47,643 bases of DNA, taken from contig NZ_JABXYK010000027.1 in the NCBI RefSeq assembly GCF_013378445.1, forward strand, positions 1 to 47,643, in the 5' to 3' direction. Every line of letters begins with the position of its first letter. Within the stretch, counting starts at the first letter, position 1. The notes beneath the pieces are model-generated. The model was not told the origin of the DNA. It was given only the letters and a program-made list of their open reading frames with translations, and did no database searches. The DNA comes from Mycoplana rhizolycopersici (GTDB taxonomy: Bacteria > Pseudomonadota > Alphaproteobacteria > Rhizobiales > Rhizobiaceae). The position numbers and the translations under genes are program-made. Positions 26,494 through 47,643 of the stretch are shown here, piece after piece.

Positions 26494-26520
26494 TCGCTCC
26501 CGCTGCGATGCCCGGCTGGC

Positions 26521-29572: not shown

Positions 29573-29844
29573 TGGCGACCCTGAATGAAGAAATCCGAGC
29601 GTTCATCGTCGAGAGCTTCCTCTTCGGCGACACGTCCCGAACACCGGGCGACGACGATTCCCTGATCGAGAACGACGTGGTGGATTCGACCGGCATCCTC
29701 GAACTGGTCGCCTTCGTCGAAGACAATCTCGGCATTCCTGTCGCCGATGCGGAGATCCTGCCGGCCAACTTCGATTCGATCGCCAAGCTCGCAGCCTTCG
29801 TCGCGTCCAAGCGAGGCGGGCTCCAGCAGGACGACGCCGCCTGA
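29572..29844 (+). CDS. Acyl carrier protein
   Basis: This 90-residue carrier protein has the phosphopantetheine-attachment serine in VVDSTGILELVAFVED (Ser39 from the second ATG). The DS motif followed by a hydrophobic helix is diagnostic. Two consecutive ATG codons, 29569 and 29572, could start it. The first overlaps the amidotransferase stop, and the second is better spaced (seven bases) from GGAG. It lacks the usual DSL triad (DST instead), as in stand-alone carriers of specialised pathways. The partner is likely the AMP-forming ligase just downstream, and the cargo is unknown. Confidence 0.88.
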   Translation: MATLNEEIRAFIVESFLFGDTSRTPGDDDSLIENDVVDSTGILELVAFVEDNLGIPVADAEILPANFDSIAKLAAFVASKRGGLQQDDAA

Positions 29845-29914
29845 ACGAGGCATCCGCCGCCGAACACATCCGCTCGGCGGCTGCCCGAAACCTAAAGCTT
29901 TGCGAGGATCAGGC

Positions 29915-33450: not shown

Positions 33451-33592
33451 ACCGAGGAAAGCCTTCATCCGCGGCATTTGCCGGCACCGGTTGCACAATT
33501 CAGTCATCCAGGCCTTCAGTCATTCGCCCCAACCGGTCCTGTCGAGGCCGTCACCGCCGCGAGTCGCGGCAGGTCAATAGACGCGACATGCT

Positions 33593-34075
33593 CTAGGAGA
33601 TGTCGATAATCTCGATTTCGCTATCCCCGAGGCTCATCACGTCGCCAACAGCCTTTCCCAGGACGATGTTCGCCACCGGCGATACATAGGAAATCGACCC
33701 CGTTTTGGGATCGGCTTCGTCCTCCCCCACGATGCGATATTTCTGGATGCGCCCGTCGTCGCGGCTGAATGTGACCGTGCTTCCGAACGCCACGGTATCG
33801 CACGAAGCCGGATCTGGGACGAGCTGGGCCGTGCGCACCCTTTCGGCAAAGTAACGCACATCGCGCAACGGTCCCGCCACCTGCCGCCGTCGTTCGTTCA
33901 CGTCTTCCACGACATTTGCGGCCTCATAGGCCGCGCGCGCCTGTTGCAGCTCGCGCTCCAGTGCGCTCAATCCCGTTTGCGTCACAAGGTTGGGATGGGG
34001 CGAAATCGGACGGTCCGGCAGAATGGTTTCCGCAGCCGTTTCGGCACTCTCTTCCTTGACAAAGGCAACGCTCAA
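33593..34075 (-). CDS. GreA/GreB-family transcription elongation factor
   Basis: This 160-residue protein has the GreA/B layout: an N-terminal helical hairpin (about 35-75) and a C-terminal FKBP-like globular domain with VAFGSTVTF, YRIVGEDEADPKTGSISYVS and ANIVLGKAVGDVM. Gre factors rescue back-tracked RNA polymerase. The start is TTG 34075 with AAGGAG well spaced upstream. The coiled-coil is shorter than in canonical GreA and lacks a clear pair of acidic tip residues, so it may be an Rnk-like or regulatory relative. Rhizobia commonly carry several such paralogues. It converges on the thioesterase cluster. Confidence 0.8.
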   Translation of the reverse strand: MSVAFVKEESAETAAETILPDRPISPHPNLVTQTGLSALERELQQARAAYEAANVVEDVNERRRQVAGPLRDVRYFAERVRTAQLVPDPASCDTVAFGSTVTFSRDDGRIQKYRIVGEDEADPKTGSISYVSPVANIVLGKAVGDVMSLGDSEIEIIDIS

Positions 34076-34228
34076 TCCCTGGCTCCTTCAGAATGACGGC
34101 ATGCACCAGCTTCTGTGGCGGGCCGATAGATAAACTGGGGCTTAGAGAGGACGATGTCCAGTTTGCTTGCCACACGAAGCCACGAAGCGCGCCGGGACGC
34201 GCCGCAAAAACTGGCCAAACGCGAGTGG

Positions 34229-35725
34229 CTACCGCGCCGTTGACGCCGCCCGAGCCGGTGGTGTCTGCCCTGGAGACGAAGCCTCGGCCTCGGATGCGAA
34301 TGCAAGCGAAGCGCCCGCCATCGCCAAGGCAATCAATCCGGATGTGACCCTTTTGCGGACATCGGTCCACGCAGCCCCCGCCTTGCTTTTCAGGGGAACG
34401 TTCTGCGCGACGAATTGCCGAAATTCGGGGAACCGCGCGTCCCCATCGAACATGTCCGCAAACAACCTCGCCTGTGCCTCCACGAAATGACGACCCAGCA
34501 GCCTGTCGGTTTCAACGCCGAACTGGTGAAATCCTCCCGGGCGCGGAGAAAATTCGCCAAAAACCAGACCATCCTCCGAACGGTAGAAATCTATCCGGAT
34601 GAAGGGAGCAGGGATCTTGCGACTGATGTTGCCGGCAAACTCCAGCAATTCCCTGTCGATCGGCGATGCGGCAAGAACGGTATCGTCATATTTGCCCGTC
34701 CTGACCGGGGCACCCTTGCCGTCATACCAATAGCGGACGTTCTGGCGACCGGTTCGGATGACTTCGAGCACGAGCGGCACTTCGCCATAGAAGCAGTAGA
34801 ACTTCAGATCGCTCGCAGGCTCCTCATTGGGGCCATAGACGATCTCCTCAGTGTTCCAGCGGTCCTTCTCCTTCTTCTGTGCGACAAAGGCGGCCGCCTC
34901 GGTGCGCAGCTCGGCAATGGACGAGATCACGCTCTTGTCGCGAACCGAAAAGATCCTGTCTTCCGAATGGATCAGAAAAACACCGCGTGCGCCGGCCGCG
35001 TTGCTGGGCTTCACTGCCAACCCCGGCCGAAGCTCCAGCTTTTCCAGCGGCTGGTTGAACTGGGGCGTTGCCGGACACCGCATGCCGAGAAAACGCGCAA
35101 ATTCCTTCCCCCGCTGCTTGTCCGCCAGAATGTCCTCCGGCGCGTAGCCGATGCGGGCCGATTGCTTTTTCCGGATAAGGGTCTGGGTCCACATGGACGA
35201 AGAGAAGGAAGCGACGGCATCCTGTGTGCGAATGCCGGGGAATTGCAGCAGGCGCTGGCTGATAAACTCCGACGGCACCTTTTCCACAAGCCGCCTCAAC
35301 CTGTCGTCATCAGCCTTCCAGGCGACCCGGACCATGGTGCTGACAACCTCTCCGAACTGGCGCCGCAGGAACGGGATGGTGTTTTCGAGCGAGGAAACCA
35401 ACGAATTGTGCGGCCGCTGCTGGCCGGCGGAGGAAAGGAAGAACTCCGTGTAACCATGGCATGCGACATTGGCGATATGAACGTGGGCGAGCTCTCCGAT
35501 GAGCCTGCCGGAAAGCAAGCTGTCGACAAAGGTTCTGATTCGTTCGGGCTCGCCTTCGACGTGAATCTGCAAGCTCGCTCCGGACGCAAGATCGCGAACC
35601 CAGCCGGACAGTTCCAAAGAATTGACCGTTGCGGCAACGGCACCGCGCGAGGCCGCCCCGTCAAAATCACCCTCGCATGTAATGACCCGCGCCACCTTTG
35701 TCGCCAGATGAAAACCCTCGCGCAT
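34229..35725 (-). CDS. Acylphosphatase-like domain fused to TupA-type ATP-grasp ligase, with C-terminal helix
   Basis: This protein has 498 residues. Residues about 10-85 look like an acylphosphatase fold (LSGWVRDLASGASLQIHVEG), but the catalytic Asn of GWVRN is Asp here, so this domain may be inactive. Residues about 170-440 fit the ATP-grasp 'TupA' group, named for teichuronopeptide synthesis: LAVKPSNAAGARGVFLIHSE for the nucleotide loop and FIRIDFYRSEDGLVFGEFSP for the metal-binding region. A hydrophobic segment near 470-485 (SGLIALAMAGASLAFA) may anchor it. An amide-forming or polymer-modifying role at the envelope is possible. I have not seen this combination described. ATG 35725 has only a weak G-rich site upstream. 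Confidence 0.65.
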   Translation of the reverse strand: MREGFHLATKVARVITCEGDFDGAASRGAVAATVNSLELSGWVRDLASGASLQIHVEGEPERIRTFVDSLLSGRLIGELAHVHIANVACHGYTEFFLSSAGQQRPHNSLVSSLENTIPFLRRQFGEVVSTMVRVAWKADDDRLRRLVEKVPSEFISQRLLQFPGIRTQDAVASFSSSMWTQTLIRKKQSARIGYAPEDILADKQRGKEFARFLGMRCPATPQFNQPLEKLELRPGLAVKPSNAAGARGVFLIHSEDRIFSVRDKSVISSIAELRTEAAAFVAQKKEKDRWNTEEIVYGPNEEPASDLKFYCFYGEVPLVLEVIRTGRQNVRYWYDGKGAPVRTGKYDDTVLAASPIDRELLEFAGNISRKIPAPFIRIDFYRSEDGLVFGEFSPRPGGFHQFGVETDRLLGRHFVEAQARLFADMFDGDARFPEFRQFVAQNVPLKSKAGAAWTDVRKRVTSGLIALAMAGASLAFASEAEASSPGQTPPARAASTAR

Positions 35726-36046
35726 GGAATACCCCCGAAATGCCTTTGATCTGCAATATCAGAAGTTGCAGTTTTAGCCAGAGGGTGAGTTAAGGACGTA
35801 TAGAGATAGTTGCAGATATCCCTCCACGACCAGCAGGCCCGAAGACATAAGTGCGGGGCGGCCGAAGGCCTTCGGTCGGAAGCGCAACGCAGGGATTGCC
35901 CGGTGTATCGGTAGCAGCGAGGCACGGTGGCCGCCCAAGAGGCGGCGTCCGCAAGAGCAGCCGAAAGGAGTGTGCGCCTGTACCGCACGGCCACTTGGGA
36001 ATGGCCGCAATCGCCCTACATTCTTCCGAAGTCAAAGGAGGTGCCC
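35726..36046. other. Intergenic region with perfect palindrome
   Basis: This 321-base gap lies between divergent genes. It contains a 14-base perfect palindrome (CCGAAGGCCTTCGG, 35862-35875) and some AT-rich sequence next to the ATP-grasp gene. No credible gene was found before the small membrane peptide. Confidence 0.4.
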
Positions 36047-36127
36047 ATGGCCGAGGATCTACCGATGTTCCTGCTGCAGGCGGCAGTTCTCACCCTGTTG
36101 GCGGGCGTATTTTTTATTCGTCTGTAG
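36047..36127 (+). CDS. Very small single-helix membrane peptide (26 aa)
   Basis: This 26-codon ORF is preceded by an ideal ribosome binding site (AAAGGAGGTGCCC then ATG 36047). The peptide starts MAEDLP, followed by a continuous hydrophobic helix (MFLLQAAVLTLLAGVFFI) and ends RL. It has acidic residues outside the helix at the N-terminus and one Arg at the C-terminus. Small stress-linked membrane peptides of this sort are often missed in annotation. It lies in the stress-gene stretch. Function unknown. Confidence 0.6.
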   Translation: MAEDLPMFLLQAAVLTLLAGVFFIRL

Positions 36128-36310
36128 ACTGCCCGTAGCATGCCGACGCGCTGCGATCGCAACCGACGCTCCGGGCATTTGCGCCACCGGTCATTCTCTC
36201 ATGGCCACAGCTCCAAGGCCCAAGTTTTTAAATGTGCTCTGTCGGAAGGCGCCGTCCGGATGCCATTTGCGACCATCCGGCCGGGCTTCGCCTAAAAACA
36301 TCTTCCGCCC

Positions 36311-36493
36311 TCAATGGGCGCGCGGCTCGCGTGTAACGTTGTATCGAAGTTCGCATTCCGTCGCATAGCGGCCGAACAGACGGAGCAGCTTCGCCTCCTC
36401 CGGCTTTGCGATCTTGTATTCCTTGCAGAAATCCACGACCGACAGCACGCGCGTGGCCGAAGCGGCGATCGCCAAATGGTTGATCTGATGCAT
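36311..36493 (-). CDS. Small conserved-looking hypothetical protein (60 aa)
   Basis: This 60-residue protein starts at ATG 36493 (MHQINHLAIA) with a strong GGGAGGA about five bases upstream. Its sequence, with CKEYKIAKPEEAKLLRLFGRYAT, is helical and resembles small DUF-type proteins in rhizobia that may bind nucleic acid or protein. I do not recognise the family. The frame extends further upstream, but without a better ribosome site. Confidence 0.6.
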   Translation of the reverse strand: MHQINHLAIAASATRVLSVVDFCKEYKIAKPEEAKLLRLFGRYATECELRYNVTREPRAH

Positions 36494-36595
36494 ACTTGTC
36501 CTCCCTGACCCGAGCACTAATACCAAAGTCTAAATTAGGGGGCTATAAATTCTGACATGTCGCTTTTTCCAAACACCGGCGTTTGCGATCGATTG

Positions 36596-37021
36596 TCAGT
36601 TTCCGTGTGCGGAGGGGAATTTGTCGATCAGTTCCAGAAGGTAGCCGACGGCGATAGGCTGAGTGGTCCGCATCCTGACCAGACCGTCCGCGCCAAGCAG
36701 CACCGCCTCGAATTTGTCCGCGGCGGGGCCGCCGAGTTCCGAACGGATCGCGTCCGGATCCATGTCATCGCGGGGACGAAGTTCCTGGAAGACGCCCGTT
36801 GCCGCAACGCGGATGATGGCAACGTTGTGCCTCTGCAACGCGTCCTGCTTCTCGGCGATGAGATACTCCTGAACCTCCGCCTTCCCGCTCGAAAGCTCTT
36901 CAAAGACGACGAGGACACGGCACTTGCCACGGAATTCGCGCAGTGTTTTCGATGCAGCCGTCGTGCCGATGCCGAGCTCTGCCCCGAGTGCCTGAAGAGT
37001 GCTTCTGTCGCCGTTGCTCAT
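36596..37021 (-). CDS. DUF4174-domain protein, probably leaderless mRNA
   Basis: This 141-residue protein shows the DUF4174 pattern REFRGKCRVLVVFEE at about 29-43, then AEVQEYLIAEKQD, NVAIIRVAA, GADGLVRMRTTQPIAVGYLL and a C-terminal LIDKFP. The fold is predicted thioredoxin-like, and family members are linked to stress or envelope functions. ATG 37021 has no Shine-Dalgarno. An EcfG-like promoter (37031-37055) ends only nine bases before it, which fits a leaderless transcript. An in-frame GTG at 37096 lies upstream of that promoter and is unlikely. Confidence 0.75.
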   Translation of the reverse strand: MSNGDRSTLQALGAELGIGTTAASKTLREFRGKCRVLVVFEELSSGKAEVQEYLIAEKQDALQRHNVAIIRVAATGVFQELRPRDDMDPDAIRSELGGPAADKFEAVLLGADGLVRMRTTQPIAVGYLLELIDKFPSAHGN

Positions 37022-37030
37022 GTCTTGGGA

Positions 37031-37055
37031 AACAGAAGATGGGTCGATTTGTTCC
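37031..37055 (-). promoter_or_regulatory. EcfG-like promoter of the DUF4174 gene
   Basis: Reading leftward: GGAAC (37055-37051), a 16-base spacer, then TGTT (37034-37031). The alphaproteobacterial general stress sigma consensus is GGAAC-N16/17-CGTT. Eighteen bases here (37038-37055) recur with one change at 38228-38245, upstream of the DUF3008 gene. Confidence 0.6.
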
Positions 37056-37114
37056 CTCGCCAGCAGCCGGCGTGGCCAACGACTTGTCCCACCCACGCAA
37101 GGCGGTGATCGACC

Positions 37115-37567
37115 CTAGCGAGGCTCGGATGCGCTTACCTTGCCCTCGCCGCGGTCATCGCATTCATCCGGCCCGTTTCTTGACTGTTCTGCCGCCCCTG
37201 CAAGACGCTTTGCCTGCGACGCCAGCATTCGGCTCAGTTCGCGCAGATCTTCCTCTTCCAGGTCCTCGATACCGACGAATTTGTTCTGTGCGTGCGACGA
37301 CAGGATGAGTTCGTCCAGCTTTGCCTGCAGCGCCCGCCCCTCGCGCGTCTGCGAATTCTGGAGGATGAACACCATCAGGAACGTGATGATGGTCGTTCCG
37401 GTATTGATCACAAGCTGCCAAGTCTCCGAAAAGCCGAAGAGTGGCCCGGAAATTCCCCAGATCAGCACCAATGCGACCGCACCGACGAAGGCGGTCGGAT
37501 GCCCCGCCCAATCGGCAAACCGCGTGGCGAATTTCGTGAATACACCTGCTTCAGATTGCGCGTTCAT
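37115..37567 (-). CDS. Low-affinity iron permease family protein
   Basis: This 150-residue membrane protein starts with FTKFATRFADWAGHPTAFVG, then the two membrane segments VALVLIWGISGPLFGF and WQLVINTGTTIITFLMVFILQ, and QNSQTREGRALQAKLDELIL. This is the signature order of the low-affinity iron permease family. A charged C-terminal helix (EDLEEEDLRELSRML) follows. ATG 37567 has AAGGAAGGAG upstream. An EcfG-like site lies at 37593-37617. In rhizobia it is typically a general-stress gene; iron transport by bacterial members is not established. Confidence 0.85.
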   Translation of the reverse strand: MNAQSEAGVFTKFATRFADWAGHPTAFVGAVALVLIWGISGPLFGFSETWQLVINTGTTIITFLMVFILQNSQTREGRALQAKLDELILSSHAQNKFVGIEDLEEEDLRELSRMLASQAKRLAGAAEQSRNGPDECDDRGEGKVSASEPR

Positions 37568-37592
37568 GGCTGGCTCCTTCCTTGCGAGCATG

Positions 37593-37617
37593 AACTGCGA
37601 TGAAGCCGTGAGGTTCC
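37593..37617 (-). promoter_or_regulatory. EcfG-like promoter of the iron permease-family gene
   Basis: Reading leftward: GGAAC (37617-37613), a 16-base spacer, and AGTT (37596-37593). It lies 26 bases from the start codon. One mismatch from the CGTT -10 consensus. Confidence 0.5.
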
Positions 37618-37721
37618 ACACGGGTCCACGCGCACCAGAATGGAGGTAGCCTGATTATCGCTTTGGTTGGTTGCCGCCAGCTCTTTGGAGGAGCAAACTC
37701 GTCCGTTGGGAGGATAATAGG

Positions 37722-37979
37722 ATGTCTGACTTCCCCTGCTCACCCGCCTCCGCAAGGCCAGACGATCTCGCCCGGCTGCAGGAACTGTTCGACACGCTTT
37801 GCCTGAAAGGACATATTTCGCGCCATTCCGCCGTGGCCGACGAGGTCGCCAGACGCATCATGCTGCTCTATCAGGCCGGCGTGCGCGACAAGGCCACATA
37901 TCTAGCGATCATCGCCACCGAGCGGAAAGGCGCCGACCATTCGATGGATATCTGCAGACGCGGCAGCGTGCTGCACTGA
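37722..37979 (+). CDS. Small hypothetical protein (85 aa)
   Basis: This 85-residue protein starts at ATG 37722 (MSDFPCSPASARPDDL) with GGAGG upstream. It is mostly helical: LARLQELFDTLCLKGHISRH, then AVADEVARRIMLLYQAGVRD. No domain is recognised. It lies divergent from the iron permease-family gene and converges on DUF3008, in a cluster of apparent stress genes. Confidence 0.6.
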   Translation: MSDFPCSPASARPDDLARLQELFDTLCLKGHISRHSAVADEVARRIMLLYQAGVRDKATYLAIIATERKGADHSMDICRRGSVLH

Positions 37980-38006
37980 GGGATGGAACATAACCTTTAA
38001 CGCCGC

Positions 38007-38189
38007 TCAATTGACGTGATCCGGCTTGCCCTTTTGCTTGCCCGTGGCAAAGTCGCGAAGCTCTTTCTCGGTCATGGATTTCTCCATCTCCTTCGAAGCG
38101 CCCTTCAACTGGCTCTTTTTCATCTCACCCCGTTTGGCGGCGAGCGCCGCACCGGCAGCCTTCTGCTGCGCCTTGGACTTCGCTGGCAT
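38007..38189 (-). CDS. DUF3008 family protein (60 aa)
   Basis: This 60-residue, very lysine-rich protein has the DUF3008 pattern MPAKSKAQQKAAGAALAAKR at its start, then ASKEMEKSMTEKELRDFAT and a GKPDHV ending. AGGAG lies eight bases upstream of ATG 38189. Members are common in rhizobia and other proteobacteria and are induced by stress. Their function is unknown, though composition suggests nucleic acid or acidic partner binding. An 18-base block shared with the DUF4174 promoter lies upstream (38228-38245), followed by ACTT 16 bases after GGAAC, a weaker -10. Confidence 0.85.
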   Translation of the reverse strand: MPAKSKAQQKAAGAALAAKRGEMKKSQLKGASKEMEKSMTEKELRDFATGKQKGKPDHVN

Positions 38190-38263
38190 GGCATCGCTCC
38201 TGTTCAAGCGAAAAAGCAAAAAGTCTCGATGGGACGATTTGTTCCGGCACGATCACGAAACTT

Positions 38264-38288
38264 GGAACCATGGCCGAGCCTGTCGGTT
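38264..38288 (+). promoter_or_regulatory. EcfG-like promoter of the 164-residue protein gene
   Basis: GGAAC (38264-38268), a 16-base spacer, and GGTT (38285-38288), 69 bases before ATG 38358. One mismatch from CGTT. Confidence 0.45.
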
Positions 38289-38357
38289 GTCCATCGAAAG
38301 GCAGCGGGCGCGTCGCGCCACGGAACGAGACGAGACGAGACGAGGAAAGGAGATCAC

Positions 38358-38852
38358 ATGCCGGCCGAACTGACGTCAATTGAGGGCAGGCTGAATGCCC
38401 ACCGAAAGCTTCTGGTGTCGATCGTCGATCTGCTGGCGGATATGCCCGCAGCGCGCTCGGCACTTCAGCGTGTGCAACGGGACCATGAGGTGCATCGGGA
38501 CCATGAAGAGGATCCGGGAATCGATCCGGACACGATGTATGCCGTTCAGCGCATTGCCAGCGCCGAGATCACAGCCATCATTCAGGCCGGCATGGCGCGC
38601 AACGCCGCAAATCATGGTCCCGCCTCCAAACCAGACGGCGAGACGAACACGCAGCCGGCTGCGGAACGCGACGCAGCGCCGCAATTCCGGCAAACGCGCC
38701 ACGGTGCAACGAACGACGGCGTTTCCAGCGCAAAACCGCGCGTGATCACCGGCAGCGACGATGCCACCGTCAACAGGGACCCGCCGGGAACGAAGCGCTC
38801 CAGCGACTGGTCGATCGGGTTTGACGAAACGCAACCGGCGGCGGACAAGTAA
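38358..38852 (+). CDS. Hypothetical protein (164 aa) with disordered tail
   Basis: This 164-residue protein starts at ATG 38358 (MPAELTSIEGRLNAHRKLLV) with AAGGAG seven bases upstream. Residues about 5-85 are helical (SIVDLLADMPAARSALQRVQ and AVQRIASAEITAIIQAGMAR). Residues 90-164 are polar and disorder-prone. No known domain is recognised. The longer open frame upstream runs antisense through DUF3008 and is not real. It lies in the stress stretch, with an EcfG-like promoter. Confidence 0.65.
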   Translation: MPAELTSIEGRLNAHRKLLVSIVDLLADMPAARSALQRVQRDHEVHRDHEEDPGIDPDTMYAVQRIASAEITAIIQAGMARNAANHGPASKPDGETNTQPAAERDAAPQFRQTRHGATNDGVSSAKPRVITGSDDATVNRDPPGTKRSSDWSIGFDETQPAADK

Positions 38853-38921
38853 CGGGCTAACGCAGGCGCTCCGGCGCCCGCATTACGGCTACGGGGCTTT
38901 GCGCTCCGGCGTCAATTGCAT

Positions 38922-38946
38922 GGAACTGCCGGCATGGCGGATCGTT
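38922..38946 (+). promoter_or_regulatory. EcfG-like promoter with perfect consensus
   Basis: GGAAC (38922-38926), a 16-base spacer, and CGTT (38943-38946), 37 bases before ATG 38984. This is an exact match to the general stress sigma factor consensus and the best of the sites in this stretch. It probably also serves the glutathione S-transferase gene downstream. Confidence 0.65.
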
Positions 38947-38983
38947 CTCTCCTGGTGTTCAACGTTCCATCGGGAGATTTGAT

Positions 38984-39232
38984 ATGAGCTACGCGCTGAA
39001 AGACCTGGAGGCTGCAGAGGTCTCCTGGCTCAAACGATTGGCCGACGGCCGTGTCCATGTGGTCCCCACGGCCATGGCCGAACGCCTGCAATCGCTGGGC
39101 CTCGCGCAGAAGGCATCTCCAGACCTGGAAGACCCGGCGATTTCCGAACAGGAACAAGGATCGCCCGGCACCCGTATACTCGGCACCCGCATCAATGACG
39201 ACGGGCTGCGGCTCCTCGATGAGGAGGAGTAA
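38984..39232 (+). CDS. Hypothetical protein (82 aa)
   Basis: This 82-residue acidic protein starts at ATG 38984 with GGGAG upstream. It has a short helical N-terminal part, with VSWLKRLADGRVHVVPTAMA resembling a small winged-helix-like unit, and an acidic C-terminus (LRLLDEEE). Family unknown. It lies directly behind a perfect EcfG-like promoter and 53 bases before the GST gene, so it is likely cotranscribed with it. Confidence 0.6.
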   Translation: MSYALKDLEAAEVSWLKRLADGRVHVVPTAMAERLQSLGLAQKASPDLEDPAISEQEQGSPGTRILGTRINDDGLRLLDEEE

Positions 39233-39285
39233 GACAGCAGACACCGCCAGGACGACGCGTCTCGAACCGCATCGTGGAGGACCAG

Positions 39286-40011
39286 ATGACCTACGAGCTT
39301 TATTATTGGGACGGCATCCAGGGACGTGGAGAATTCGTGCGACTGGCGCTCGAGGAGGCAGGCGCCGACTATGTCGATGTCGCACGCGTCCCGGGGCGCG
39401 GCAACCGGGAGATGATGGAGCTTGTCGACGACACGCGCACGCTGCTGATCCCCTTTGCCCCGCCTTTTCTGAGAGACGGCGACCAGATCGTCTCGCATGT
39501 GGCAAATATCCTGTTCTACCTCGGCCCGAAGCTTGGTCTTGCGCCGAAGGATGAGACCTTGCGCTGGTTCGCCAACGGCCTGCAGCTTACCGTGACGGAC
39601 TTCGTCACGGAAGCGCACGACACGCATCACCCGATTGCGGTCTCGAAATATTACGAGGATCAGAAGGACGCCGCGAAGGCGCGGTCGCGCGAGTTCGTCA
39701 CCAACCGCATTCCGAAATTTCTCGGCTATTTCGAGCGGGTTCTGAGGCAAAACCCGGCTCAAGACGGCCATGTGGTGGGCGACGGCCTGACCTATGTCGA
39801 TCTTTCGCTGTTCCAGATGATCGAGGGCCTGAGCTATGCCTTTCCCGCCGCGATGAAACGCTATCGAGCGCGATTTCCGGAACTGACGCGACTTCATGGT
39901 GTGGTCGCCAAAAGATCGGCAATCGCAACCTACCTCGCCTCACCGCGTCGCCTCCCCTTCAACGAAAGCGGCATTTTCCGCCACTATCCAGAACTGGACA
40001 TCGACGTTTGA
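39286..40011 (+). CDS. Glutathione S-transferase
   Basis: This 241-residue enzyme has a thioredoxin-fold N-domain (YELYYWDGIQGRGEFVRLAL) and a helical C-domain. The YYW...GRGEFVRLAL region is of the sigma/alpha-like type, with Tyr as the likely catalytic residue. I chose ATG 39286, with GGAGG five bases upstream, over a GTG at 39274. It conjugates glutathione to electrophiles, fitting a stress role. It is the last gene before the foreign-looking region. Confidence 0.85.
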   Translation: MTYELYYWDGIQGRGEFVRLALEEAGADYVDVARVPGRGNREMMELVDDTRTLLIPFAPPFLRDGDQIVSHVANILFYLGPKLGLAPKDETLRWFANGLQLTVTDFVTEAHDTHHPIAVSKYYEDQKDAAKARSREFVTNRIPKFLGYFERVLRQNPAQDGHVVGDGLTYVDLSLFQMIEGLSYAFPAAMKRYRARFPELTRLHGVVAKRSAIATYLASPRRLPFNESGIFRHYPELDIDV

Positions 40012-40248
40012 ACACCGACAGCATGCAAACAGGATAAATCAAGCCCGGCCCACACCCTGCGGCTCCAAAGGCAACGAGGCGAACAGATCGGCTAACCTTG
40101 CTGGCTAGCCGCCATGCAAGTTATTGATGATAAAAAGATGGAGTGGTGGGCCCGGAGGGGCGTATTAATCATTGAAATCATTGAGGTTTTTGGGATTTTT
40201 GTAGGCCGATACCGTCAAAAATACCGTCGTCTGGATGCGAATGTTTTC
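40012..40248. other. Junction between core and AT-rich accessory region
   Basis: These 237 bases follow the GST stop. Base composition changes here to more A/T. The stretch includes the first copy of a 16-base direct repeat (40144-40159) and short sequences such as GATACCGTC that echo bases near 41950. No gene is seen. Confidence 0.45.
40144..40159 (+). repeat. Direct repeat copy 1, tRNA 3'-end-like (possible att site)
   Basis: TGGTGGGCCCGGAGGG; its complement ends GGGCCCACCA, as a tRNA 3' end with CCA would. An exact copy is at 42031-42046 in the same orientation. Integrases often use such sequences as crossover sites, so it may mark an element boundary. No tRNA body is present next to it. 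Confidence 0.5.
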
Positions 40249-41292
40249 CTACCATGGTTTTGGTATCTCGCCATTGATAAGACCATAAATTACCGCTGCC
40301 ACCAAGGCCGAGGTGAATGCCAGCCCCCACGACAGGACTGTGGGTAAGGCGCGCCCGACCGCCCCCGGCTTCCGAGGACTGAGATAGATCATTGTGTTCG
40401 GGATCATTCTCTTGTGCATCTGCACGACCACGGCTGCGATGAGCACAACGGCTGCCAGAAACGCGATGCGCCCCCAAAAATCCAAGTCGGGGATCAAGGC
40501 GACTACGAACAGCAGCATCAGCCCATTCACATTCAAGCCGAACTTTCGCACCGACGTTGCCAGTGGCTTTTCAAAACTTTTCATATGCGCGACGAGTGAC
40601 TCGGCTTTCCCCGTGACCCAACTCTCCTGCGCACCTTGCACACGAATTTCGTTTTCACCTTCGGCATTCAGTTCGATCACGACCATCTTGTTCACGCCGT
40701 AGAGGTCGGGCTCTTGGATATAGAGCCGAAGGTAACGGTGCTCACCCAGCCTTTCGCTCTCGTTGAGGAAGTCGGCTGCATACATGTTCGTCTCGATGCG
40801 CCGTTCGCGGAAGCTGACCGTGACGGTCTTGTGACCAAAGTCACTGGCGATGAACTGAATCAAATGGCGCACGTCTTCCGCGTAAAGCCGAACAGCGCCA
40901 ATCTGTCGAACAGCGGTATGCAACTGCTCTGGCGATGGCCCCTGTTTGGTCGCCGAATTATCTTGGTCGTGTGGATGCAGGATGAACGTTCCGCCCGTTC
41001 CGAGCGTCGATGACCACCGGCCCCGGATCTGCCCATTCTCGGTGAGGGTTCCATTGACTTCGATGTCGCCCGCAGCCACGCCTTCCGCTACTTGACGTGC
41101 AGCCCCACTAAGCGCGAGCGTCTTTCCGTCGAATGTTCCAGCGACATCATACAGGGCAAGTCCGAACAGGTGGTCTTGCAACCTGATCAGACCCTTCAGG
41201 TCGTCCTGCTCGCTAGTTTCGAGTTCGACAAACACGTTGCCTGTGTTCGTCCCGTAAACGTTCCCTGCCCAAAGCCGACTCAGCGCACTCAT
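40249..41292 (-). CDS. Unknown membrane protein with soluble N-terminal region
   Basis: This 347-residue protein starts at ATG 41292 (MSALSRLWAGNVYGTNTGNV) with GGAG five bases upstream. Residues 1-240 look soluble and beta-rich (GLALYDVAGTFDGKTLALSG; later TVTVSFRERRIETNMYAADF). Three membrane helices occupy about 255-345 (GLMLLFVVALIP; AFLAAVVLIAAVVVQ; LAFTSALVAAVIYGLI). No signal peptide is seen. I do not recognise the family. It lies between the two copies of the direct repeat, in AT-richer DNA, near a broken methyltransferase and a STAND NTPase, so an accessory or defence-linked role is possible but unproven. Confidence 0.65.
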   Translation of the reverse strand: MSALSRLWAGNVYGTNTGNVFVELETSEQDDLKGLIRLQDHLFGLALYDVAGTFDGKTLALSGAARQVAEGVAAGDIEVNGTLTENGQIRGRWSSTLGTGGTFILHPHDQDNSATKQGPSPEQLHTAVRQIGAVRLYAEDVRHLIQFIASDFGHKTVTVSFRERRIETNMYAADFLNESERLGEHRYLRLYIQEPDLYGVNKMVVIELNAEGENEIRVQGAQESWVTGKAESLVAHMKSFEKPLATSVRKFGLNVNGLMLLFVVALIPDLDFWGRIAFLAAVVLIAAVVVQMHKRMIPNTMIYLSPRKPGAVGRALPTVLSWGLAFTSALVAAVIYGLINGEIPKPW

Positions 41293-41478
41293 GAAGTCTC
41301 CGCATTGTTTGAGCGAGGGTATCAAACGCTGCGACCACAACGAAGTTCAGGCAGCAATAATACTGCGGATAAGCCTTTCCCACGGGCTTTGGTTATTATC
41401 GCTTAGGGGGGGGGGTGCCGCATAAAACATAGACTGCACCTGTCGTAACCCGATGGAAATGACCGACTAATATCGGGA

Positions 41479-41697
41479 TCAAGCCATTGTCAAAGAGATA
41501 TCGGCGTACCAATTGTCTAGGTTACGCAGGCCGCTGCTAGCGCGATTTACCTCACCATAGGGGATATCCGTCAGCGTTAGATCGACAGACCCGTCTGGGA
41601 TCTCACACATCCGCTCAATGCAATCTCCAATAAGCAAGTGCGGCCCGCCAGTGTCCGCGATTCGCATACCGATCACACTCAACATAATGTAGACCAA
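41479..41697 (-). pseudogene. Truncated DNA methyltransferase (N4/N6 type) fragment
   Basis: This 72-residue fragment holds the N-terminal part of a type II-like methyltransferase: HLLIGDCIERMCEIPDGSVD, then the catalytic TDIPYGEVNR (the DPPY-type motif as DIPY) and ASSGLRNLDN. The frame then stops after an unrelated-looking tail. The SAM-binding FxG region and target-recognition part are missing, so it cannot be active alone. It suggests an older restriction-modification gene cut by a deletion near 41500. AT-rich inverted repeats (AAACTAT/ATAGTTT, 41742-41762) just upstream may be its former control site. Confidence 0.6.
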
Positions 41698-42030
41698 ACC
41701 CTATACATGATGAATGGACCGTTCAACAAATAGTTGATCGCAAACTATACCATAAATAGTTTCAGGACTCGCACCTGCAACGTATCGGACACGAACCCGC
41801 AACCGTCATGTCTCTACACATGCTTCGGACTTAACACCTGACCGCACTAGACTGGAACAGATAAGCCGTTGAGAGTCATGATTGAATCGCTCTGACTAAT
41901 GCCGTCAGCGATACTGTTGAACTGAGCGACGGTATTTGCGTCTCAGGATACCGTCAGAATGGCATTTCAGCCGATTTCCGGTTTTCTAACTTATTGATTT
42001 TGTTGATGAATTTTTCCGCACAAAAGCGGT

Positions 42031-42046
42031 TGGTGGGCCCGGAGGG
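42031..42046 (+). repeat. Direct repeat copy 2, tRNA 3'-end-like (possible att site)
   Basis: Same 16 bases and orientation as 40144-40159, starts 1887 bases apart. The bases just outside differ, except that TTATTGAT occurs shortly before both. This suggests a small inserted unit or tandem integration. Confidence 0.5.
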
Positions 42047-42236
42047 CCAGTAAATATCCATATAAATTCATCGGTTAACCGTGAGGTTAGCCAGACGAGT
42101 TTTCTGCCTGTTCCCGATGTTAGCCAGCCTCGCCTTCGAAACAGCCAATACTGCAAACCGGGCGGCCTACATCAGGCCCCTTGGGACATCGGGGGCGATT
42201 GAATAACGAAGGACGCCGCCGAGAAGGAGGTACCCC

Positions 42237-42272
42237 TTGCGTTACAACCGACAAGAACTTCTATCTTGTTGA
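42237..42272 (+). CDS. Possible 11-residue leader peptide
   Basis: TTG 42237 follows GAAGGAGG with six bases between, and encodes MRYNRQELLSC before TGA. It is 33 bases before the NTPase start. It may be a leader peptide, or the ribosome site may be a remnant of a lost gene. Very tentative. Confidence 0.2.
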   Translation: MRYNRQELLSC

Positions 42273-42305
42273 AGTTAATTGAGTTTCTGAAAACCTAGAT
42301 GGCGC

Positions 42306-45300
42306 ATGGGCTACACTGCTGATACTATCCCCCAACGGGTATCGGGGGTTACGGTGAACAGCAGCCAGTACGTTTCTTTGTCACGACGCTTCGTCGAAAT
42401 CTATTCCGCAGACTTTGACGACGAACCGGATAGCATTTGGGCTAGTCTCGCGACCAGAGAGACAGGGAAAACGTGGGAAGAAATTCTAACGAATGATGTG
42501 TCTATTCTCCTTGGCACAGCTGGATCAGGTAAAACAACTGAAGTTCGTCAGCAAGTGAAGCGCCTCGTTGAGGCAGGACAAGACGCGTTCCTGATGCGCT
42601 TGGAAGCGTTGCAAGACGGGACCTTGCCGGATTCATTCGACTTCGAATTGGAAAATCAAGGCGAGCGGTTTGAAAAATGGAAACGAACAAGAAAAGGCGC
42701 GTTTCTGTTTTTTGACGCTCTCGACGAGGCACGCTTACCGTCTTCACGCAACGAAAGTGCGCTGGACAAGGCACTCAACATTGTCTCACGAGAGGTCGGG
42801 CGACGACAGCAGCCCCTGCGTGTTCTGGTTACCAGTCGCCCAAGCGAGTGGCTTGGTGATGGCGATGTGAGACGTCTAGATCGTTTCATACGACAGACAC
42901 GAAATGCCGAACAGGACTTGGGAGCAGACGCCCCGATCCACAAGATTTACCGCCTCGCACCGCTAGTGACTGGGGACATTGAGAAACTTGCTATTTCTCG
43001 TGATGTGAAGCCCTCGGACTTTATCAGCGCTGTGAACGCCCATCTTTCTACAGGCCTAATCCAACAACCGCTGGACGCGCATCTATTTTTAGATGTCTGG
43101 AAAAAGGCGGTTAATGAGGGCCGTTCCCCCGAGGACGTCTTCAAATCAAGACTCCAAATCATGCGCGATTTGGTTACGTGGCGGCTCTTCGGGCGATCTG
43201 AAAGCGAAGATCGCTTGAATGTCGACATTAACCGCGCACGTAAGGCCGTAGCGAAACTTGCAGCCTTCGTGATTTTGTCCGGTAGACAGGATTTTTCTGT
43301 CCTTCCGTTGGCGGCAGGCGATGCCACGAATGCTGCGAATATCCTGTCTACAGATGCGGAGGCTTGGACAAATACAGAGGTGCGTCAACTGCTCGCGTGC
43401 GGGCTGTTTCAGCCATCTGTAGGGGGGCGTATCAGGTTCGCACATCGGGAGATACGGGACTTCCTCGCAGCTGAGCATTTCGACGAGAGCTTGCGAGCTA
43501 GAGCACATTCTGAAAAGACAATCGCACCGCTTTTTGCTGAGGGACTAGGACGGCGATCGATCCCGCAGTCGACAGAGCACCTCATGGGCTGGTTGGCCGC
43601 CTTGAACAGCTCTGCAAAGGCAGTTGTAGCAAATGTCAGACCTGCGCTTCTCATAGAGACTGGTGATCCAAAATCATTATCTGTCGGCGATAGGGAGATC
43701 GCACTCCGCAACCAAGCGCGTCTTTACGACAACCTCCGTTACAGAGGCGAGTGGTTCTATCATGATGATGTGAAGCGCTTCTCACACGCTGACTTATGGC
43801 CTTTAGTCGATGAACTCCTAGATAAATCCAGCTCTCCTGAGCTGACCGCGTTTTTAGTTGAGATCGCTAGATTTGGTAAAATGAAGCCACTCGCTTCAAA
43901 ACTGGCGACCTATGTGGGAGATGCAGAAATTGGGTATCGAATAAAAGCGGAAGCATGCACTGCGCTCGATGAGATAGGGGATCAAACTTTCCGCGCCGAT
44001 GTACTGGCAGCAGCCCTGACGGCTACACCACCAGACGCCGAGGATTCCGACTCTGCTCCGAACTGGAACATGTTCCAGCTGAAGGCGTTGAAATACGGCT
44101 CTGGCGAGGCCACTCTGCTCGACGGGATTAACATTCTTTCGAGTATTCAAAGAGAGCGCTCAAACTACTCATCCGCGACATCTAGGTATTTGATCGAAAT
44201 ACTCGAAGACTTGCCAAAGGCGCAAAAGCAGATTTGGCTGTCAATTTTGCTGCGCTTTGCATTTTCCGGCCGTTCTGAGAACCGGTACCGAATGCCCAAC
44301 GCTTCGGCTCGGTACTCAAGGTTCGTGCCTGCCATAATCCACATAGCGTCGGAACTATTGCTTGATAAGGATATGCCTCCAGACGACGATGACTTGCTCA
44401 ACGCCATTGAGATGGCGATGGGCAAGGGCCGCAGGATTGACGTATTCGGTCGCAAGGCACCAACACAGCAATTGGCGAATGGCCTGCGCGCACGACCCAA
44501 CGTCAAACACGCTCTTGTTCAACGAAGAGTGGCCCTTTTCTCTGATAACGTGCAGGGGCACCGGGTCCCGTTCGGAGTAATCCACCCTCTAGAGTTTAAT
44601 GATGAAGAGGGACATGGAGACATCTTCGATCGGTCCGATGTGTCCCACTTTTGCGAGCTTGCGTCAAAGGCCAACGATAAATGCCAGCGGGCATTTCTGC
44701 TCGACTTAGCCCAAACGATTCTTACCAAACTCCGGGGTGCAGATCACAATATTGCAGTGGATGTGCTCAGAAAGCATCTCAAGAAATACGGGACCGTGAA
44801 TCAACGGCGGCATCTCGGCATCCGCGGCTGGTTTCTTCGAATGAAATTACGCTTCCAGCATCAATACCGCTATAATATATCGAGACAGTTTCTGAGCAAG
44901 AAGGAAACTATTCAGGCCTGGGGAACCGCACGAAAAAATAGAAAGTTCTTCGAGAGTAGACGCAGGGAGATTTCCGCTGGTGAGTTCGATAACAACAACG
45001 CCATCTGGCTCTTTGAACAATCTCCAGATGATCTCGGAAATGGAACTATTCGCGCGATCAAGGAGCAGTATGGGGCGGGGATCGCCAAACTTTTTAGTAA
45101 TGGCTTGCGAAAATACTGGAAGATCAATGATACGAGCTACGCTGACCGGCGAACATACCTAGGCCACATAGGCCTAGCAGGCGTTAATCTCGATTACTCA
45201 TTTGGAGAACCCCCGTCTGACGCCGGCCTTGCGCGAAAGGCCTTCCGTTACGCTTTCCACGAATTGAACGGCTTTCCCCAATGGGTTGAGGAATTAGCAA

Positions 45301-46727
45301 ACAATTTCCCAAGCCAATTTTGCTCTGAGATCAAGGGGGCTTTGCTGGCAGACTTCAGCTCTGGTCGAGGTGACGATGACCTCCACGCGTCGGATTGCAT
45401 AAGCAAGATCGCCTACTCTAGTGTCGGAATTAGAAACCTGGTGGCTCCGATGCTTCTTCGGATGCTAATGTGTACTCTTCCAGGAAACCGTCTCGACAGA
45501 TTGCTCTGCCTAGACGTCGTTGCTCGCGCGCCGACTGTCGAGCGAGACCGCCTTTCCAGGTTTCTTATCTCGGGCTATCGGGCGTCATGGACCCGTTTTG
45601 ATTTCCGCGAGGCATGGGTGTGGCTTGATGGTCTAATGAACTCGAACTCAAGTGCCGCTAAAAATGTGTTGGTCACGACTTTTGGCGATCTGCACAGCGT
45701 CGGGCAGAGGGCGCTCTTTCTCGAATATTTGGGTCGAGAAGGACACAAGCCTGCTCTGGACGAAGGTTCGAGCCAAGTCCGAGTGGAGTACAAGCAAGAT
45801 GCAATTCTTCTAGAGTGGCTGGTTCAGGCATCATACCTGGCATGGCCACCTGAGAAGGATGTGAAGCACGAGAATGTCTACTCGCCGGGAAAAGAAGACC
45901 ATGCGGAGAGCAACAGGCGAAACTACACCAAGATGTTGGCGATGTTTCAAACGCCCGATGCTGTCAGCGCATTTGAAAGACTGGCCAAATCAATGGTGCT
46001 TTCGAGCTACCGAGATACGTTTTTGTACGAGATCGAGCTCATGAAACAAGGAGCGGGGAGAAGGCCCGAGTTCTCACTTGATGAGGCAATTCGGTTTCTT
46101 AACGATCACTCCAAGCCACCAGCGACTGTGGAAGAGTTCAGGCAGCTCTGCCAAATGCATGTACAGACGCTCCTCGAAAGGCTGCACACTTCCGACGATG
46201 ATGAAAGCGCATTCTTCCGGCGCGGCGACGCGAAAGAGGGCGATCTTAGGAATTGGCTCGCTGCTCGCCTAAGAGACGCGGGAGAGCGCTACTACACAGT
46301 AGTAAGGGAGCAGGAAGTCGCGGGCGAAAAGCGACCCGACCTCAGGCTGCATTCGAGAGTAGACGCTTTGGGGAAGGTGTCCGTTGAGATCAAACTTGCG
46401 GATATGGATCATTGGACAGGAGATCAGCTGGTCAACACTCCGGGTGAACAGCTTTCAAAGCAATATTTGTTTGAGCCTTCATCTCACACAGGGATCTATG
46501 TTCTCGTCAATGCCGCTCGTCCAAGGCTACTCGAGGAAGACAAGAAGACCAAGAATGTTAAGAGAAGCGCCTTCCAAAAGACTGTCGCTGGCAAAGCGGT
46601 GAACTTCGAAGAACTCGTTGCCCTCGTGGGACAGAAGTGTACAGCAGTAAATGAGGGCCTCGCTGAAGGTAAGATGGTGGTCGCAGTGACGCGCGACATC
46701 TCTGAGAAACCTTCGGAGACCCTTTGA
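42306..46727 (+). CDS. STAND/NACHT-like NTPase with C-terminal PD-(D/E)xK nuclease domain
   Basis: This 1473-residue protein has an N-terminal P-loop: Walker A GTAGSGKTT at 70-78, and Walker B FLFFDALDEA with D137 and the NACHT-like D140-E141. A sensor-type VLVTSRPSEW comes near 176-185, and FAHREIRDFLAAEHF around H380 is the helical-domain motif of STAND ATPases. A very long alpha-helical region (about 450-1290) follows, probably repeat-like and suited to target recognition. The C-terminus (about 1320-1430) has GEKRPDLRL (D1345) and VSVEIKLAD (E1361, K1363): D-x15-ExK, the PD-(D/E)xK nuclease core. This fits a phage-sensing nuclease of the Avs kind, but with the nuclease at the C-terminus. 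It lies in AT-rich accessory DNA. The start ATG 42306 has a poor ribosome site; a nearby downstream GTG is possible. Confidence 0.82.
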   Translation: MGYTADTIPQRVSGVTVNSSQYVSLSRRFVEIYSADFDDEPDSIWASLATRETGKTWEEILTNDVSILLGTAGSGKTTEVRQQVKRLVEAGQDAFLMRLEALQDGTLPDSFDFELENQGERFEKWKRTRKGAFLFFDALDEARLPSSRNESALDKALNIVSREVGRRQQPLRVLVTSRPSEWLGDGDVRRLDRFIRQTRNAEQDLGADAPIHKIYRLAPLVTGDIEKLAISRDVKPSDFISAVNAHLSTGLIQQPLDAHLFLDVWKKAVNEGRSPEDVFKSRLQIMRDLVTWRLFGRSESEDRLNVDINRARKAVAKLAAFVILSGRQDFSVLPLAAGDATNAANILSTDAEAWTNTEVRQLLACGLFQPSVGGRIRFAHREIRDFLAAEHFDESLRARAHSEKTIAPLFAEGLGRRSIPQSTEHLMGWLAALNSSAKAVVANVRPALLIETGDPKSLSVGDREIALRNQARLYDNLRYRGEWFYHDDVKRFSHADLWPLVDELLDKSSSPELTAFLVEIARFGKMKPLASKLATYVGDAEIGYRIKAEACTALDEIGDQTFRADVLAAALTATPPDAEDSDSAPNWNMFQLKALKYGSGEATLLDGINILSSIQRERSNYSSATSRYLIEILEDLPKAQKQIWLSILLRFAFSGRSENRYRMPNASARYSRFVPAIIHIASELLLDKDMPPDDDDLLNAIEMAMGKGRRIDVFGRKAPTQQLANGLRARPNVKHALVQRRVALFSDNVQGHRVPFGVIHPLEFNDEEGHGDIFDRSDVSHFCELASKANDKCQRAFLLDLAQTILTKLRGADHNIAVDVLRKHLKKYGTVNQRRHLGIRGWFLRMKLRFQHQYRYNISRQFLSKKETIQAWGTARKNRKFFESRRREISAGEFDNNNAIWLFEQSPDDLGNGTIRAIKEQYGAGIAKLFSNGLRKYWKINDTSYADRRTYLGHIGLAGVNLDYSFGEPPSDAGLARKAFRYAFHELNGFPQWVEELANNFPSQFCSEIKGALLADFSSGRGDDDLHASDCISKIAYSSVGIRNLVAPMLLRMLMCTLPGNRLDRLLCLDVVARAPTVERDRLSRFLISGYRASWTRFDFREAWVWLDGLMNSNSSAAKNVLVTTFGDLHSVGQRALFLEYLGREGHKPALDEGSSQVRVEYKQDAILLEWLVQASYLAWPPEKDVKHENVYSPGKEDHAESNRRNYTKMLAMFQTPDAVSAFERLAKSMVLSSYRDTFLYEIELMKQGAGRRPEFSLDEAIRFLNDHSKPPATVEEFRQLCQMHVQTLLERLHTSDDDESAFFRRGDAKEGDLRNWLAARLRDAGERYYTVVREQEVAGEKRPDLRLHSRVDALGKVSVEIKLADMDHWTGDQLVNTPGEQLSKQYLFEPSSHTGIYVLVNAARPRLLEEDKKTKNVKRSAFQKTVAGKAVNFEELVALVGQKCTAVNEGLAEGKMVVAVTRDISEKPSETL

Positions 46728-46898
46728 GAGTACGATCCGAGGAAAATGTCCGCTTTCCGCCCTTAGCAACCCTAGACCCTACCGATACCGCGTCTGACGC
46801 AGAGGGCAGATGAGGGTCGAACTCGGACCGCATCGCGAGATGCCCGGATATCCGCTCTCGCCATTCGCAATCCAATTTCGGACGGTCTGCTCGCGGTC
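46728..46898. other. Gap between NTPase and remnant gene
   Basis: These 171 bases return to higher GC. Frames on the minus strand continue from the remnant to the right but show no recognisable domain. No terminator hairpin was identified. Confidence 0.35.
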
Positions 46899-47129
46899 TC
46901 AAAACAGCGTCCGCTCGCCTTCGAGCGAATAGATATGATTTCCGCAGGTCCAGCGCCCAGATGAGCGGGCAACGGAGACCAGATCGTCCGACAAACTGCT
47001 GGACGTCCAGCAAGAGCTGCGAATGTCCATAGGCTCCGCGGCGTAAAGTGGTGCTGCGCCGAGAGATGCAAGCATCACGAAACTCAGCACAGTTGTCACG
47101 AGTACTTTTCGGAGGTCATTCCACCACAT
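46899..47129 (-). pseudogene. N-terminal remnant of a membrane signalling protein (possible diguanylate cyclase)
   Basis: This is a 76-residue open frame with a clear signal peptide or first membrane helix (VLVTTVLSFVMLASLGAAPLYAAEP). A segment with two cysteines and GRWTCGNHIYSLEGERTL follows, reminding me of the periplasmic start of certain rhizobial GGDEF proteins. The frame then stops. I cannot follow homology in any frame beyond, so it may be truncated by the accessory insertion. No good ribosome site precedes ATG 47129. It could instead be a small secreted protein. Confidence 0.4.
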
Positions 47130-47412
47130 TGGTTGCAGCTACACATCAAACATTGACGTGCGGTTACAGGGGGATGATTTTGGTCCAAAGCGTCCCAATT
47201 CGCCTGCCGGTTTTACCGGTGAGTAAGGGGCGGCTCTTCCTTAAGCGGCGACAGGACTTCCGCTATGCACCGCGGTAGCCGTGCTCGCGGAGGTGAAGCG
47301 GGCGCGAAAAAAACACTGACCCGTTCGGAGGCCGATGCCGGTCTGACGATGATGCGCGTTGACATCGACCCCAAATGAGAACATTTATAGAACAAACTAA
47401 GGAGCAGCAGCG
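47130..47412. other. Intergenic region
   Basis: These 283 bases have no recognised gene. The frames present are short and show no domain or good ribosome site. Confidence 0.35.
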
Positions 47413-47541
47413 ATGGCAATGGCTGAGAAATATATCGTCCTTCCGTACAGGCGGGTCCGCGGACGTTTGGCGCCTGGCGAAATGCGCGCTGCATCAACAG
47501 CCGCGGGCGCTGAGAAGATGATGTCCCAGGGAGTGGTGTAG
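47413..47541 (+). CDS. Small hypothetical ORF (42 aa) with good ribosome site
   Basis: ATG 47413 follows AAGGAG by eight bases. The peptide begins MAMAEKYIVLPYRRVRG and ends QGVV. The start is reminiscent of the N-terminus of some subtilase-like proteins (KYIVLP), so it may be the broken front end of a larger gene that continued to the right. It may equally be a genuine small protein. Confidence 0.35.
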   Translation: MAMAEKYIVLPYRRVRGRLAPGEMRAASTAAGAEKMMSQGVV

Positions 47542-47643
47542 CTCGGGCGATCCTCGAGCTTTCCGGACAGGGCCGGGAACGGGTCAACTTGCAGCAGGCA
47601 AGTTGATGAGCTGATCATCACTCATTGTGGCGATCGTCTCAAG

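What the first reader, a model, noticed from the sequence alone, without database searches (positions are those of the whole stretch)
42306..46727. Very large STAND NTPase with a C-terminal PD-(D/E)xK nuclease: candidate anti-phage system
Seen: Walker A (G70-T78), NACHT-like Walker B (D137, D140-E141), the FAHREIRDFLAAEHF helical-domain motif, a roughly 800-residue helical middle, and a D1345/E1361-x-K1363 nuclease core at the end. Known: Avs-type STAND defence proteins sense phage proteins and activate nucleases, but the well-known ones carry the nuclease at the N-terminus. Inference: a single-gene defence system with reversed domain order, in AT-rich accessory DNA beside a broken methyltransferase.
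Basis: partly seen in the sequence, partly recalled or inferred. Interest (0 to 1): 0.88.

Follow-up and report, generated by a model that had tools for sequence, protein, structure and literature searches.

The report
NLR-like phage-defence receptor ending in nuclease
This single large bacterial gene looks like an immune receptor built like animal NOD-like receptors, with a DNA-cutting domain at its far end; it is a new branch beside two named anti-phage proteins and seems to move between bacteria as one gene.

Summary
The 1473-codon ORF (probable start GTG 42354, 1457 aa) is predicted to fold as a NACHT/NLR module (residues ~55-450), a helical solenoid (~450-1180) and a C-terminal PD-(D/E)xK nuclease (~1300-1473). 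Only 21 residues are invariant in 35 aligned rows (window plus 34 homologues); they include K76, D137, D140, E141 and E1311, E1335, D1345, E1361, K1363, Q1382, Y1387. There is little room for an N-terminal effector.

The architecture is not unprecedented. NCBIfam already holds the full-length anti-phage family HyoA (553.6 bits here, cut-off 1200) and EruA; rows of both clades carry the same tail. The window protein and its close relatives form a third, well-supported clade; the 8 of its 11 rows that I scored miss the cut-offs. The gene was not found in 40 relatives, shares DNA with nine homologous loci only in the gene plus about 100 nt, and in two relatives lies between a tRNA gene and a copy of its 3' end. 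Selection is purifying (dN/dS 0.12-0.16).

Best reading: a single-gene NLR-like phage sensor that switches on its C-terminal DNase. Defence is inferred, not tested.

The parts
42354..46727 (+). NACHT-solenoid-nuclease gene with its most likely start (GTG, 1457 aa)
   Evidence: First start codon of the frame in six of eight relatives gives 1456-1457 aa; GGGGG before the GTG in the window
42306..46727 (+). The ORF as listed (ATG start, 1473 aa); residue numbers in this report follow it
42468..42959 (+). NACHT nucleotide-binding domain, residues about 55-218: Walker A G70-T77, Walker B D137/D140/E141, R178
   Evidence: G75, K76, D137, D140, E141, R178 invariant in 35 of 35 rows; predicted fold aligned to NLRP7, NLRP3, NLRC4, NOD2
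42960..43655 (+). Rest of the NLR-like module (helical and winged-helix-like parts), residues about 219-450, with the LAA motif 387-389
43656..45845 (+). All-helical solenoid, residues about 451-1180; candidate sensor, with 561-920 among the least conserved stretches against HyoA
   Evidence: Model; HEAT-like solenoids among the structural matches; conservation profile
46203..46724 (+). PD-(D/E)xK nuclease, residues about 1300-1473: E1311, E1335, D1345, E1361, K1363, Q1382, Y1387
   Evidence: Invariant in 35 of 35 rows; model pLDDT 70-96 per block of ten here except the last block, 46; structural matches led by restriction and related nucleases
42031..42046 (+). 16-nt copy of the 3' end of a tRNA-Met gene (possible attachment-site scar)
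40144..40159 (+). Second 16-nt copy of the same tRNA-Met 3' end, near the GC step
41479..41697 (-). Fragment (72 aa) of a DNA methyltransferase

Best explanation
A single-gene, NLR-like anti-phage (or anti-mobile-element) receptor with the effector at the C-terminus. The NACHT module at the front is the nucleotide switch; the helical solenoid (perhaps its divergent part, 561-920) binds an infection signal; binding opens the NACHT module, the proteins oligomerise, and the C-terminal PD-(D/E)xK domains are brought together and cut DNA, stopping the phage or killing the infected cell. Shown here by computation: the two enzyme cores, their predicted folds and order, their invariance, purifying selection, full-length homology to HyoA, patchy spread as one gene. 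Inferred: defence function, the trigger, oligomerisation, DNA as the substrate.
Confidence: 0.72

Rival explanations
1. Restriction-like action: the C-terminal domain itself recognises invading DNA (for example by lack of a modification) and the NACHT part only licenses or powers cleavage.
For: Several of the best structural matches of the tail are Type II restriction enzymes; a DNA methyltransferase fragment lies 0.6 kb upstream; two relatives have a Mrr-type nuclease gene directly upstream.
Against: The front module matches NLR structures. The methyltransferase is a fragment, and DNA homology with relatives stops at the gene except for the Mrr pair, so no shared modification partner was seen.
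Confidence: 0.15
2. Anti-plasmid or inter-element conflict gene: cargo of mobile islands that keeps out competing elements, phage defence being secondary.
For: Relatives in tRNA-bounded elements, on plasmids and on viral contigs.
Against: The nearest named families are curated as anti-phage; many phage-defence genes also ride on such elements (recalled).
Confidence: 0.2
3. Cell-regulatory STAND protein with no defence role.
For: STAND proteins also act in regulation (the structural list includes an entry on negative regulation of the maltose system, rank 44).
Against: Not found in 6 same-genus and 34 other related genomes; rows from different families are interleaved in the tree; carries a nuclease with an intact site.
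Confidence: 0.04

Closest known systems
HyoA (NCBIfam NF058534, NACHT domain-containing antiphage protein)
   Same: Aligned end to end (window residues 25-1444 to profile 1-1406 of 1430); same order NACHT, middle, PD-(D/E)xK tail; same invariant catalytic residues in the 19 rows of the HyoA clade, 15 of them over the cut-off.
   Different: 553.6 bits against a cut-off of 1200; 19-21% identity to the eight members over the cut-off that were aligned; separate clade with full support; stretch 561-920 only 8-14% identical across the clades.
EruA (NCBIfam NF058535)
   Same: NACHT plus the same C-terminal nuclease residues in the 5 rows of its clade; two of the five were scored and pass the EruA cut-off (L019, L045).
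   Different: 140.9 bits against a cut-off of 1000; more distant than HyoA.
Nuclease-bearing bacterial NACHT proteins, e.g. bNACHT25/32 (PMC12169576, passages read)
   Same: NACHT switch coupled to a PD-(D/E)xK DNase.
   Different: There the DNase is N-terminal; here the nuclease follows the helical middle at the C-terminus.
Avs (AVAST) proteins (PMC12724215, passages read on Avs2)
   Same: STAND switch; effector activated on sensing a viral target.
   Different: N-terminal effector, C-terminal sensor; no Avs profile listed.

Membership tests
HyoA (NF058534) | Whole-protein score at or above the curated cut-off of 1200 bits | tested here: not met
   553.6 bits; 7 of the other 10 rows of its clade scored, 565-605 bits; L008, L009 and L021 not scored
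HyoA (NF058534) | Full-length alignment to the profile | tested here: met
   Residues 25-1444 to positions 1-1406 of 1430 in one stretch
HyoA (NF058534) | Falls inside the HyoA clade | tested here: not met
   Window clade of 11 rows (support 100) and HyoA clade of 19 rows (support 99) are separate; quick tree, midpoint root, some long branches
HyoA (NF058534) | Demonstrated anti-phage activity | not testable with these tools
   No experiment possible; source paper not found
EruA (NF058535) | Whole-protein score at or above 1000 bits | tested here: not met
   140.9 bits
NACHT / NLR-like STAND NTPases | Walker A and NACHT-type Walker B residues | tested here: met
   K76, D137, D140, E141 invariant in 35 of 35 rows
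NACHT / NLR-like STAND NTPases | NLR module fold (nucleotide-binding, helical, winged-helix domains) | tested here: met
Pfam NACHT (PF05729) | Score at or above the gathering cut-off of 26.7 bits | tested here: not met
   13.1 bits; nSTAND3 19.0 of 27.2
PD-(D/E)xK nuclease superfamily | Active-site residues E, D, (D/E)xK and the QxxxY helix (definition recalled) | tested here: met
   E1311, E1335, D1345, E1361, K1363, Q1382, Y1387 invariant in 35 of 35 rows
PD-(D/E)xK nuclease superfamily | Core fold | tested here: met
PD-(D/E)xK nuclease superfamily | Metal-dependent DNA cleavage | not testable with these tools
   -
Avs (AVAST) | Effector domain N-terminal to the STAND NTPase | tested here: not met
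   69 residues before Walker A in the long ORF, 53 from the probable start; nuclease at about 1300-1473
Avs (AVAST) | Match to PADLOC Avs models | tested here: inconclusive
   None listed; only weak PDC-S68 matches, best E = 0.0017
bNACHT proteins with N-terminal DNase (clade 6) | N-terminal PD-(D/E)xK effector | tested here: not met
   As for Avs; definition from passages of PMC12169576

The most novel reading that the evidence does not exclude
HyoA, EruA and this clade are one large class of bacterial NLR-like receptors built receptor-first, effector-last, in which the C-terminal nuclease also contacts the invader's DNA, so that cleavage needs two signals: a protein trigger read by the solenoid and a DNA signal read by the tail. 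The window clade would be a third, alphaproteobacterial branch that travels as a naked single gene.
Probability: 0.15. Interest if true: 0.7.

Novelty: new member of a known kind. Interest (0 to 1): 0.45.

Why it matters
It shows that the receptor-first, nuclease-last NLR plan is not an oddity of one gene: seven nuclease residues and the NACHT core are invariant across three deep clades. That makes a simple question testable in laboratory E. coli: how does a NACHT switch activate an effector from the far end of the solenoid? The clade's tight conservation (70-81% identity to homologues in other genera and families) with unrelated flanking DNA also makes it a clean example of a defence-like gene moving alone.

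Tried and rejected
Reversed order as a new architecture: rejected, because NCBIfam HyoA already covers the protein end to end. Avs membership: rejected on domain order; PADLOC listed no Avs model. Pfam and PADLOC gave only sub-threshold or weak hits; PDB by single sequence gave none. A PDB profile search with 18 sequences gave mainly designed alphaRep repeats at about 530-610 plus one NLR (NOD2 entry) at E 1.2; with the tail alone it gave 6 hits, best E 0.11, none a nuclease. Tail profile against the Mrr-type neighbour of two relatives: no detectable similarity (thin profiles).

Shared neighbour gene or defence island: one search picked 128 neighbouring ORFs in eight loci, mechanically, not by a gene finder; 70 of the 128 were scanned. 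Pfam matched 77 families, of which 25 were shown, among them 3 integrases and 2 Mrr_cat. PADLOC matched 14 families, none in more than 3 members (mad3 and mad8 in 3, AriA and ATPase-Toprim in 2; best E 3.1e-32). Some of these may be real defence genes; I did not place them and claim no enrichment either way.

Empty site: downstream flanks of tRNA-Met from five same-genus genomes (4.6, 7.3 and three of 19.9 kb) gave no tblastx match to window 25000-40143 and one blastn match, 85 nt at the tRNA end, so the junction between contig C17 (tRNA-Met plus integrase) and the window's contig is not shown. Window 38000-40143 itself matched only in short pieces in related genomes.

Literature: HyoA and EruA not found in the held library (the EruA paper listed is about an E. 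coli regulator). Searches on NACHT or STAND defence and islands listed no paper that I recognised as theirs; listings and abstract starts only. DefensePredictor (PMC13092281, passages) has 0 occurrences of words beginning Hyo or Eru in the main text.

Foldseek 'pdb' and 'viral' searches never ran; only the VIA-align second look did. Rows left out of the 35-row tree: loci that were cut off, partial, duplicate or not needed (L001, L018, L020, L024, L030, L032, L035, L044, L048, L050-L052, L063), the relics L022, L025, L026, and the plasmid hits that were not fetched.
Full report
WHAT IS THERE. The window is a complete contig, C27, of a 5.6-Mb draft genome. The ORF at 42306-46727 is open and unbroken. 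In six of eight relatives the frame's first start codon lies at the equivalent of residue 17, GTG 42354; a G-rich stretch stands before it in the window and in three of the six. The protein probably has 1457 residues. Residue numbers here follow the longer ORF.

CONSERVATION. In 35 aligned rows, the window's included, 21 window residues never change. Seven are the nuclease site (E1311, E1335, D1345, E1361, K1363, Q1382, Y1387) and five are Walker A and B residues (G75, K76, D137, D140, E141). The D-E-x-K spacing occurs once among invariant positions. The gene is under purifying selection against eight relatives (dN/dS 0.12-0.16; nuclease part 0.03-0.12; NG86, with dS above 1 in several pairs). 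Between the window clade and the HyoA clade the stretch 561-920 is least conserved (8-14% identity per 60-residue block), but 1041-1160 (14%) is close; inside the window clade 801-860 is lowest (61%). The sensor is therefore only a guess.

WHO ITS RELATIVES ARE. NCBIfam 20.0 names two full-length families: HyoA (553.6 bits, cut-off 1200) and EruA (140.9, cut-off 1000). Six close relatives score 575-605 for HyoA and the rhizobial plasmid one 565. The tree has three blocks: EruA 5 rows (two scored, both over its cut-off), HyoA 19 (15 over its cut-off), window clade 11, with supports of 99-100 (quick method, midpoint root, four long branches and eleven rows of unusual composition flagged). So the protein is a homologue of HyoA, not HyoA by the curators' rule. 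One viral-contig HyoA relative outside the tree, L032, aligns only to profile positions 1-1247 and so seems to lack the tail.

DISTRIBUTION. The protein was found in 1 of 41 genomes of the kinship sample, the own one. One scan of the species-genome collection found 8 relatives at 70-81% identity, by exact peptide patterns and hence incompletely: Rhodobacter, Mameliella, Maritalea, Litoreibacter, two Maricaulis, Pseudochrobactrum and Sinirhodobacter. Plasmids: 64 records with some match, 5 covering at least 80% of the query. Phage records: 2, weak, N-terminal third only. The HyoA model rings at E <= 1e-20 in 11 of 385 class genomes (8 over cut-off) and 22 of 398 phylum genomes (7 over cut-off), the own genome and two others counted in both, and in 0 of 14 controls. 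Viral contigs: 6 loci, two of them perhaps one sequence; two of the four scored are over the HyoA cut-off.

MOBILITY. Against nine relatives, window DNA similarity (query 38000-47643) begins at 42260-42369 and ends at 46714-46728: the gene and almost nothing else. Some loci hold little flank on one side (about 0.7-1 kb in L002, L004, L005). Among the 36 pairs of relatives the clear exceptions are L002-L005, which share an upstream Mrr-type nuclease gene, and L008-L021, which extend about 175 nt upstream of the start and 85 nt downstream; the rest go no further than about 100 nt. In Pseudochrobactrum (L007) the gene lies between a tRNA-Met gene and an 18-nt copy of its 3' end, beside an ORF with DUF6538 (integrase-like by recall); in Maricaulis (L009) between a tRNA-Thr gene and a copy of at least 30 nt, with a tyrosine integrase. 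In the tree Brucellaceae pairs with Maricaulaceae (support 92) and Devosiaceae with Roseobacteraceae and others (99), which suggests transfer. In the window two 16-nt copies of a tRNA-Met 3' end stand at 40144 and 42031; the assembly's only other exact copy is the intact gene on contig C17, followed 58 nt later by an integrase ORF. This suggests old integrations upstream of the gene. It does not prove that the gene came with them, and the junction could not be shown.

MECHANISM. Most likely a nucleotide-switched receptor: trigger on the solenoid, NACHT opening and oligomerisation, pairing of the C-terminal nucleases, DNA cleavage. The first two steps rest on the NLR fold and on what is known of STAND proteins (PMC12169576 and PMC12724215, passages read). 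The third rests on the intact active site and, for pairing, on analogy. Nothing here shows the trigger, the oligomer or the substrate. Restriction-like DNA recognition by the tail and an anti-plasmid role remain open.

VERDICT. A real, probably functional NLR-like defence protein of a new clade next to HyoA. The architecture is already represented in a curated anti-phage family, hence 'new member of a known kind'.

Noticed in passing
L002:399-983 and L005:9369-9947: A Mrr_cat nuclease gene, 66% identical between the two loci, sits directly upstream of the homologue; among the eight loci scanned Mrr_cat matched two ORFs, these. A possible second effector or a two-gene version.
   Followed up: partly
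window 40144-40159 and 42031-42046; G000 contig C17 (L064:8011-9356): Two 16-nt copies of a tRNA-Met 3' end in the window; the intact tRNA-Met on another contig is followed by a tyrosine integrase ORF, and one same-genus genome (G005) has an 86% identical stretch (408 aa, tblastx) behind its tRNA-Met.
   Followed up: partly
L007:3642-16640: A tRNA-Met-bounded element of about 13 kb; an ORF at 7836-9107 has a HVHLH stretch like mobilisation relaxases (motif recalled; no Pfam hit).
   Followed up: partly
L022:10001-10450 and L026:8001-8481: Two Roseibium plasmids match only a piece of the nuclease tail (80-83% identical within residues 1253-1407): probably remains of a lost homologue.
   Followed up: no
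L024 and L025 (Sinorhizobium plasmids): Residues 54-1228 (37%) match on one plasmid of S. fredii CCBAU 45436 (and on L024 of S. sojae); the tail 1221-1468 (50%) matches on another plasmid of that strain, behind an 'AAA family ATPase': a split or decayed system.
   Followed up: no
L032:5974-9939: A viral-contig HyoA relative (1322 aa) that aligns only to profile positions 1-1247 of 1430, so apparently without the nuclease tail: truncation or another effector.
   Followed up: no
window 47513-47643: The contig ends in DNA similar to IS256-family transposase genes of rhizobial plasmids, which probably explains the break.
   Followed up: no
window 40249-41340 (-): ORF of 363 aa between the two tRNA-Met copies; only a sub-threshold Pfam hit.
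   Followed up: no
H11 and H12: Plasmids of 246,192 and 246,197 bp with the same distant homologue are filed under Dysgonomonadaceae and Martelella, both cold seep: perhaps one plasmid from a mixed culture.
   Followed up: no
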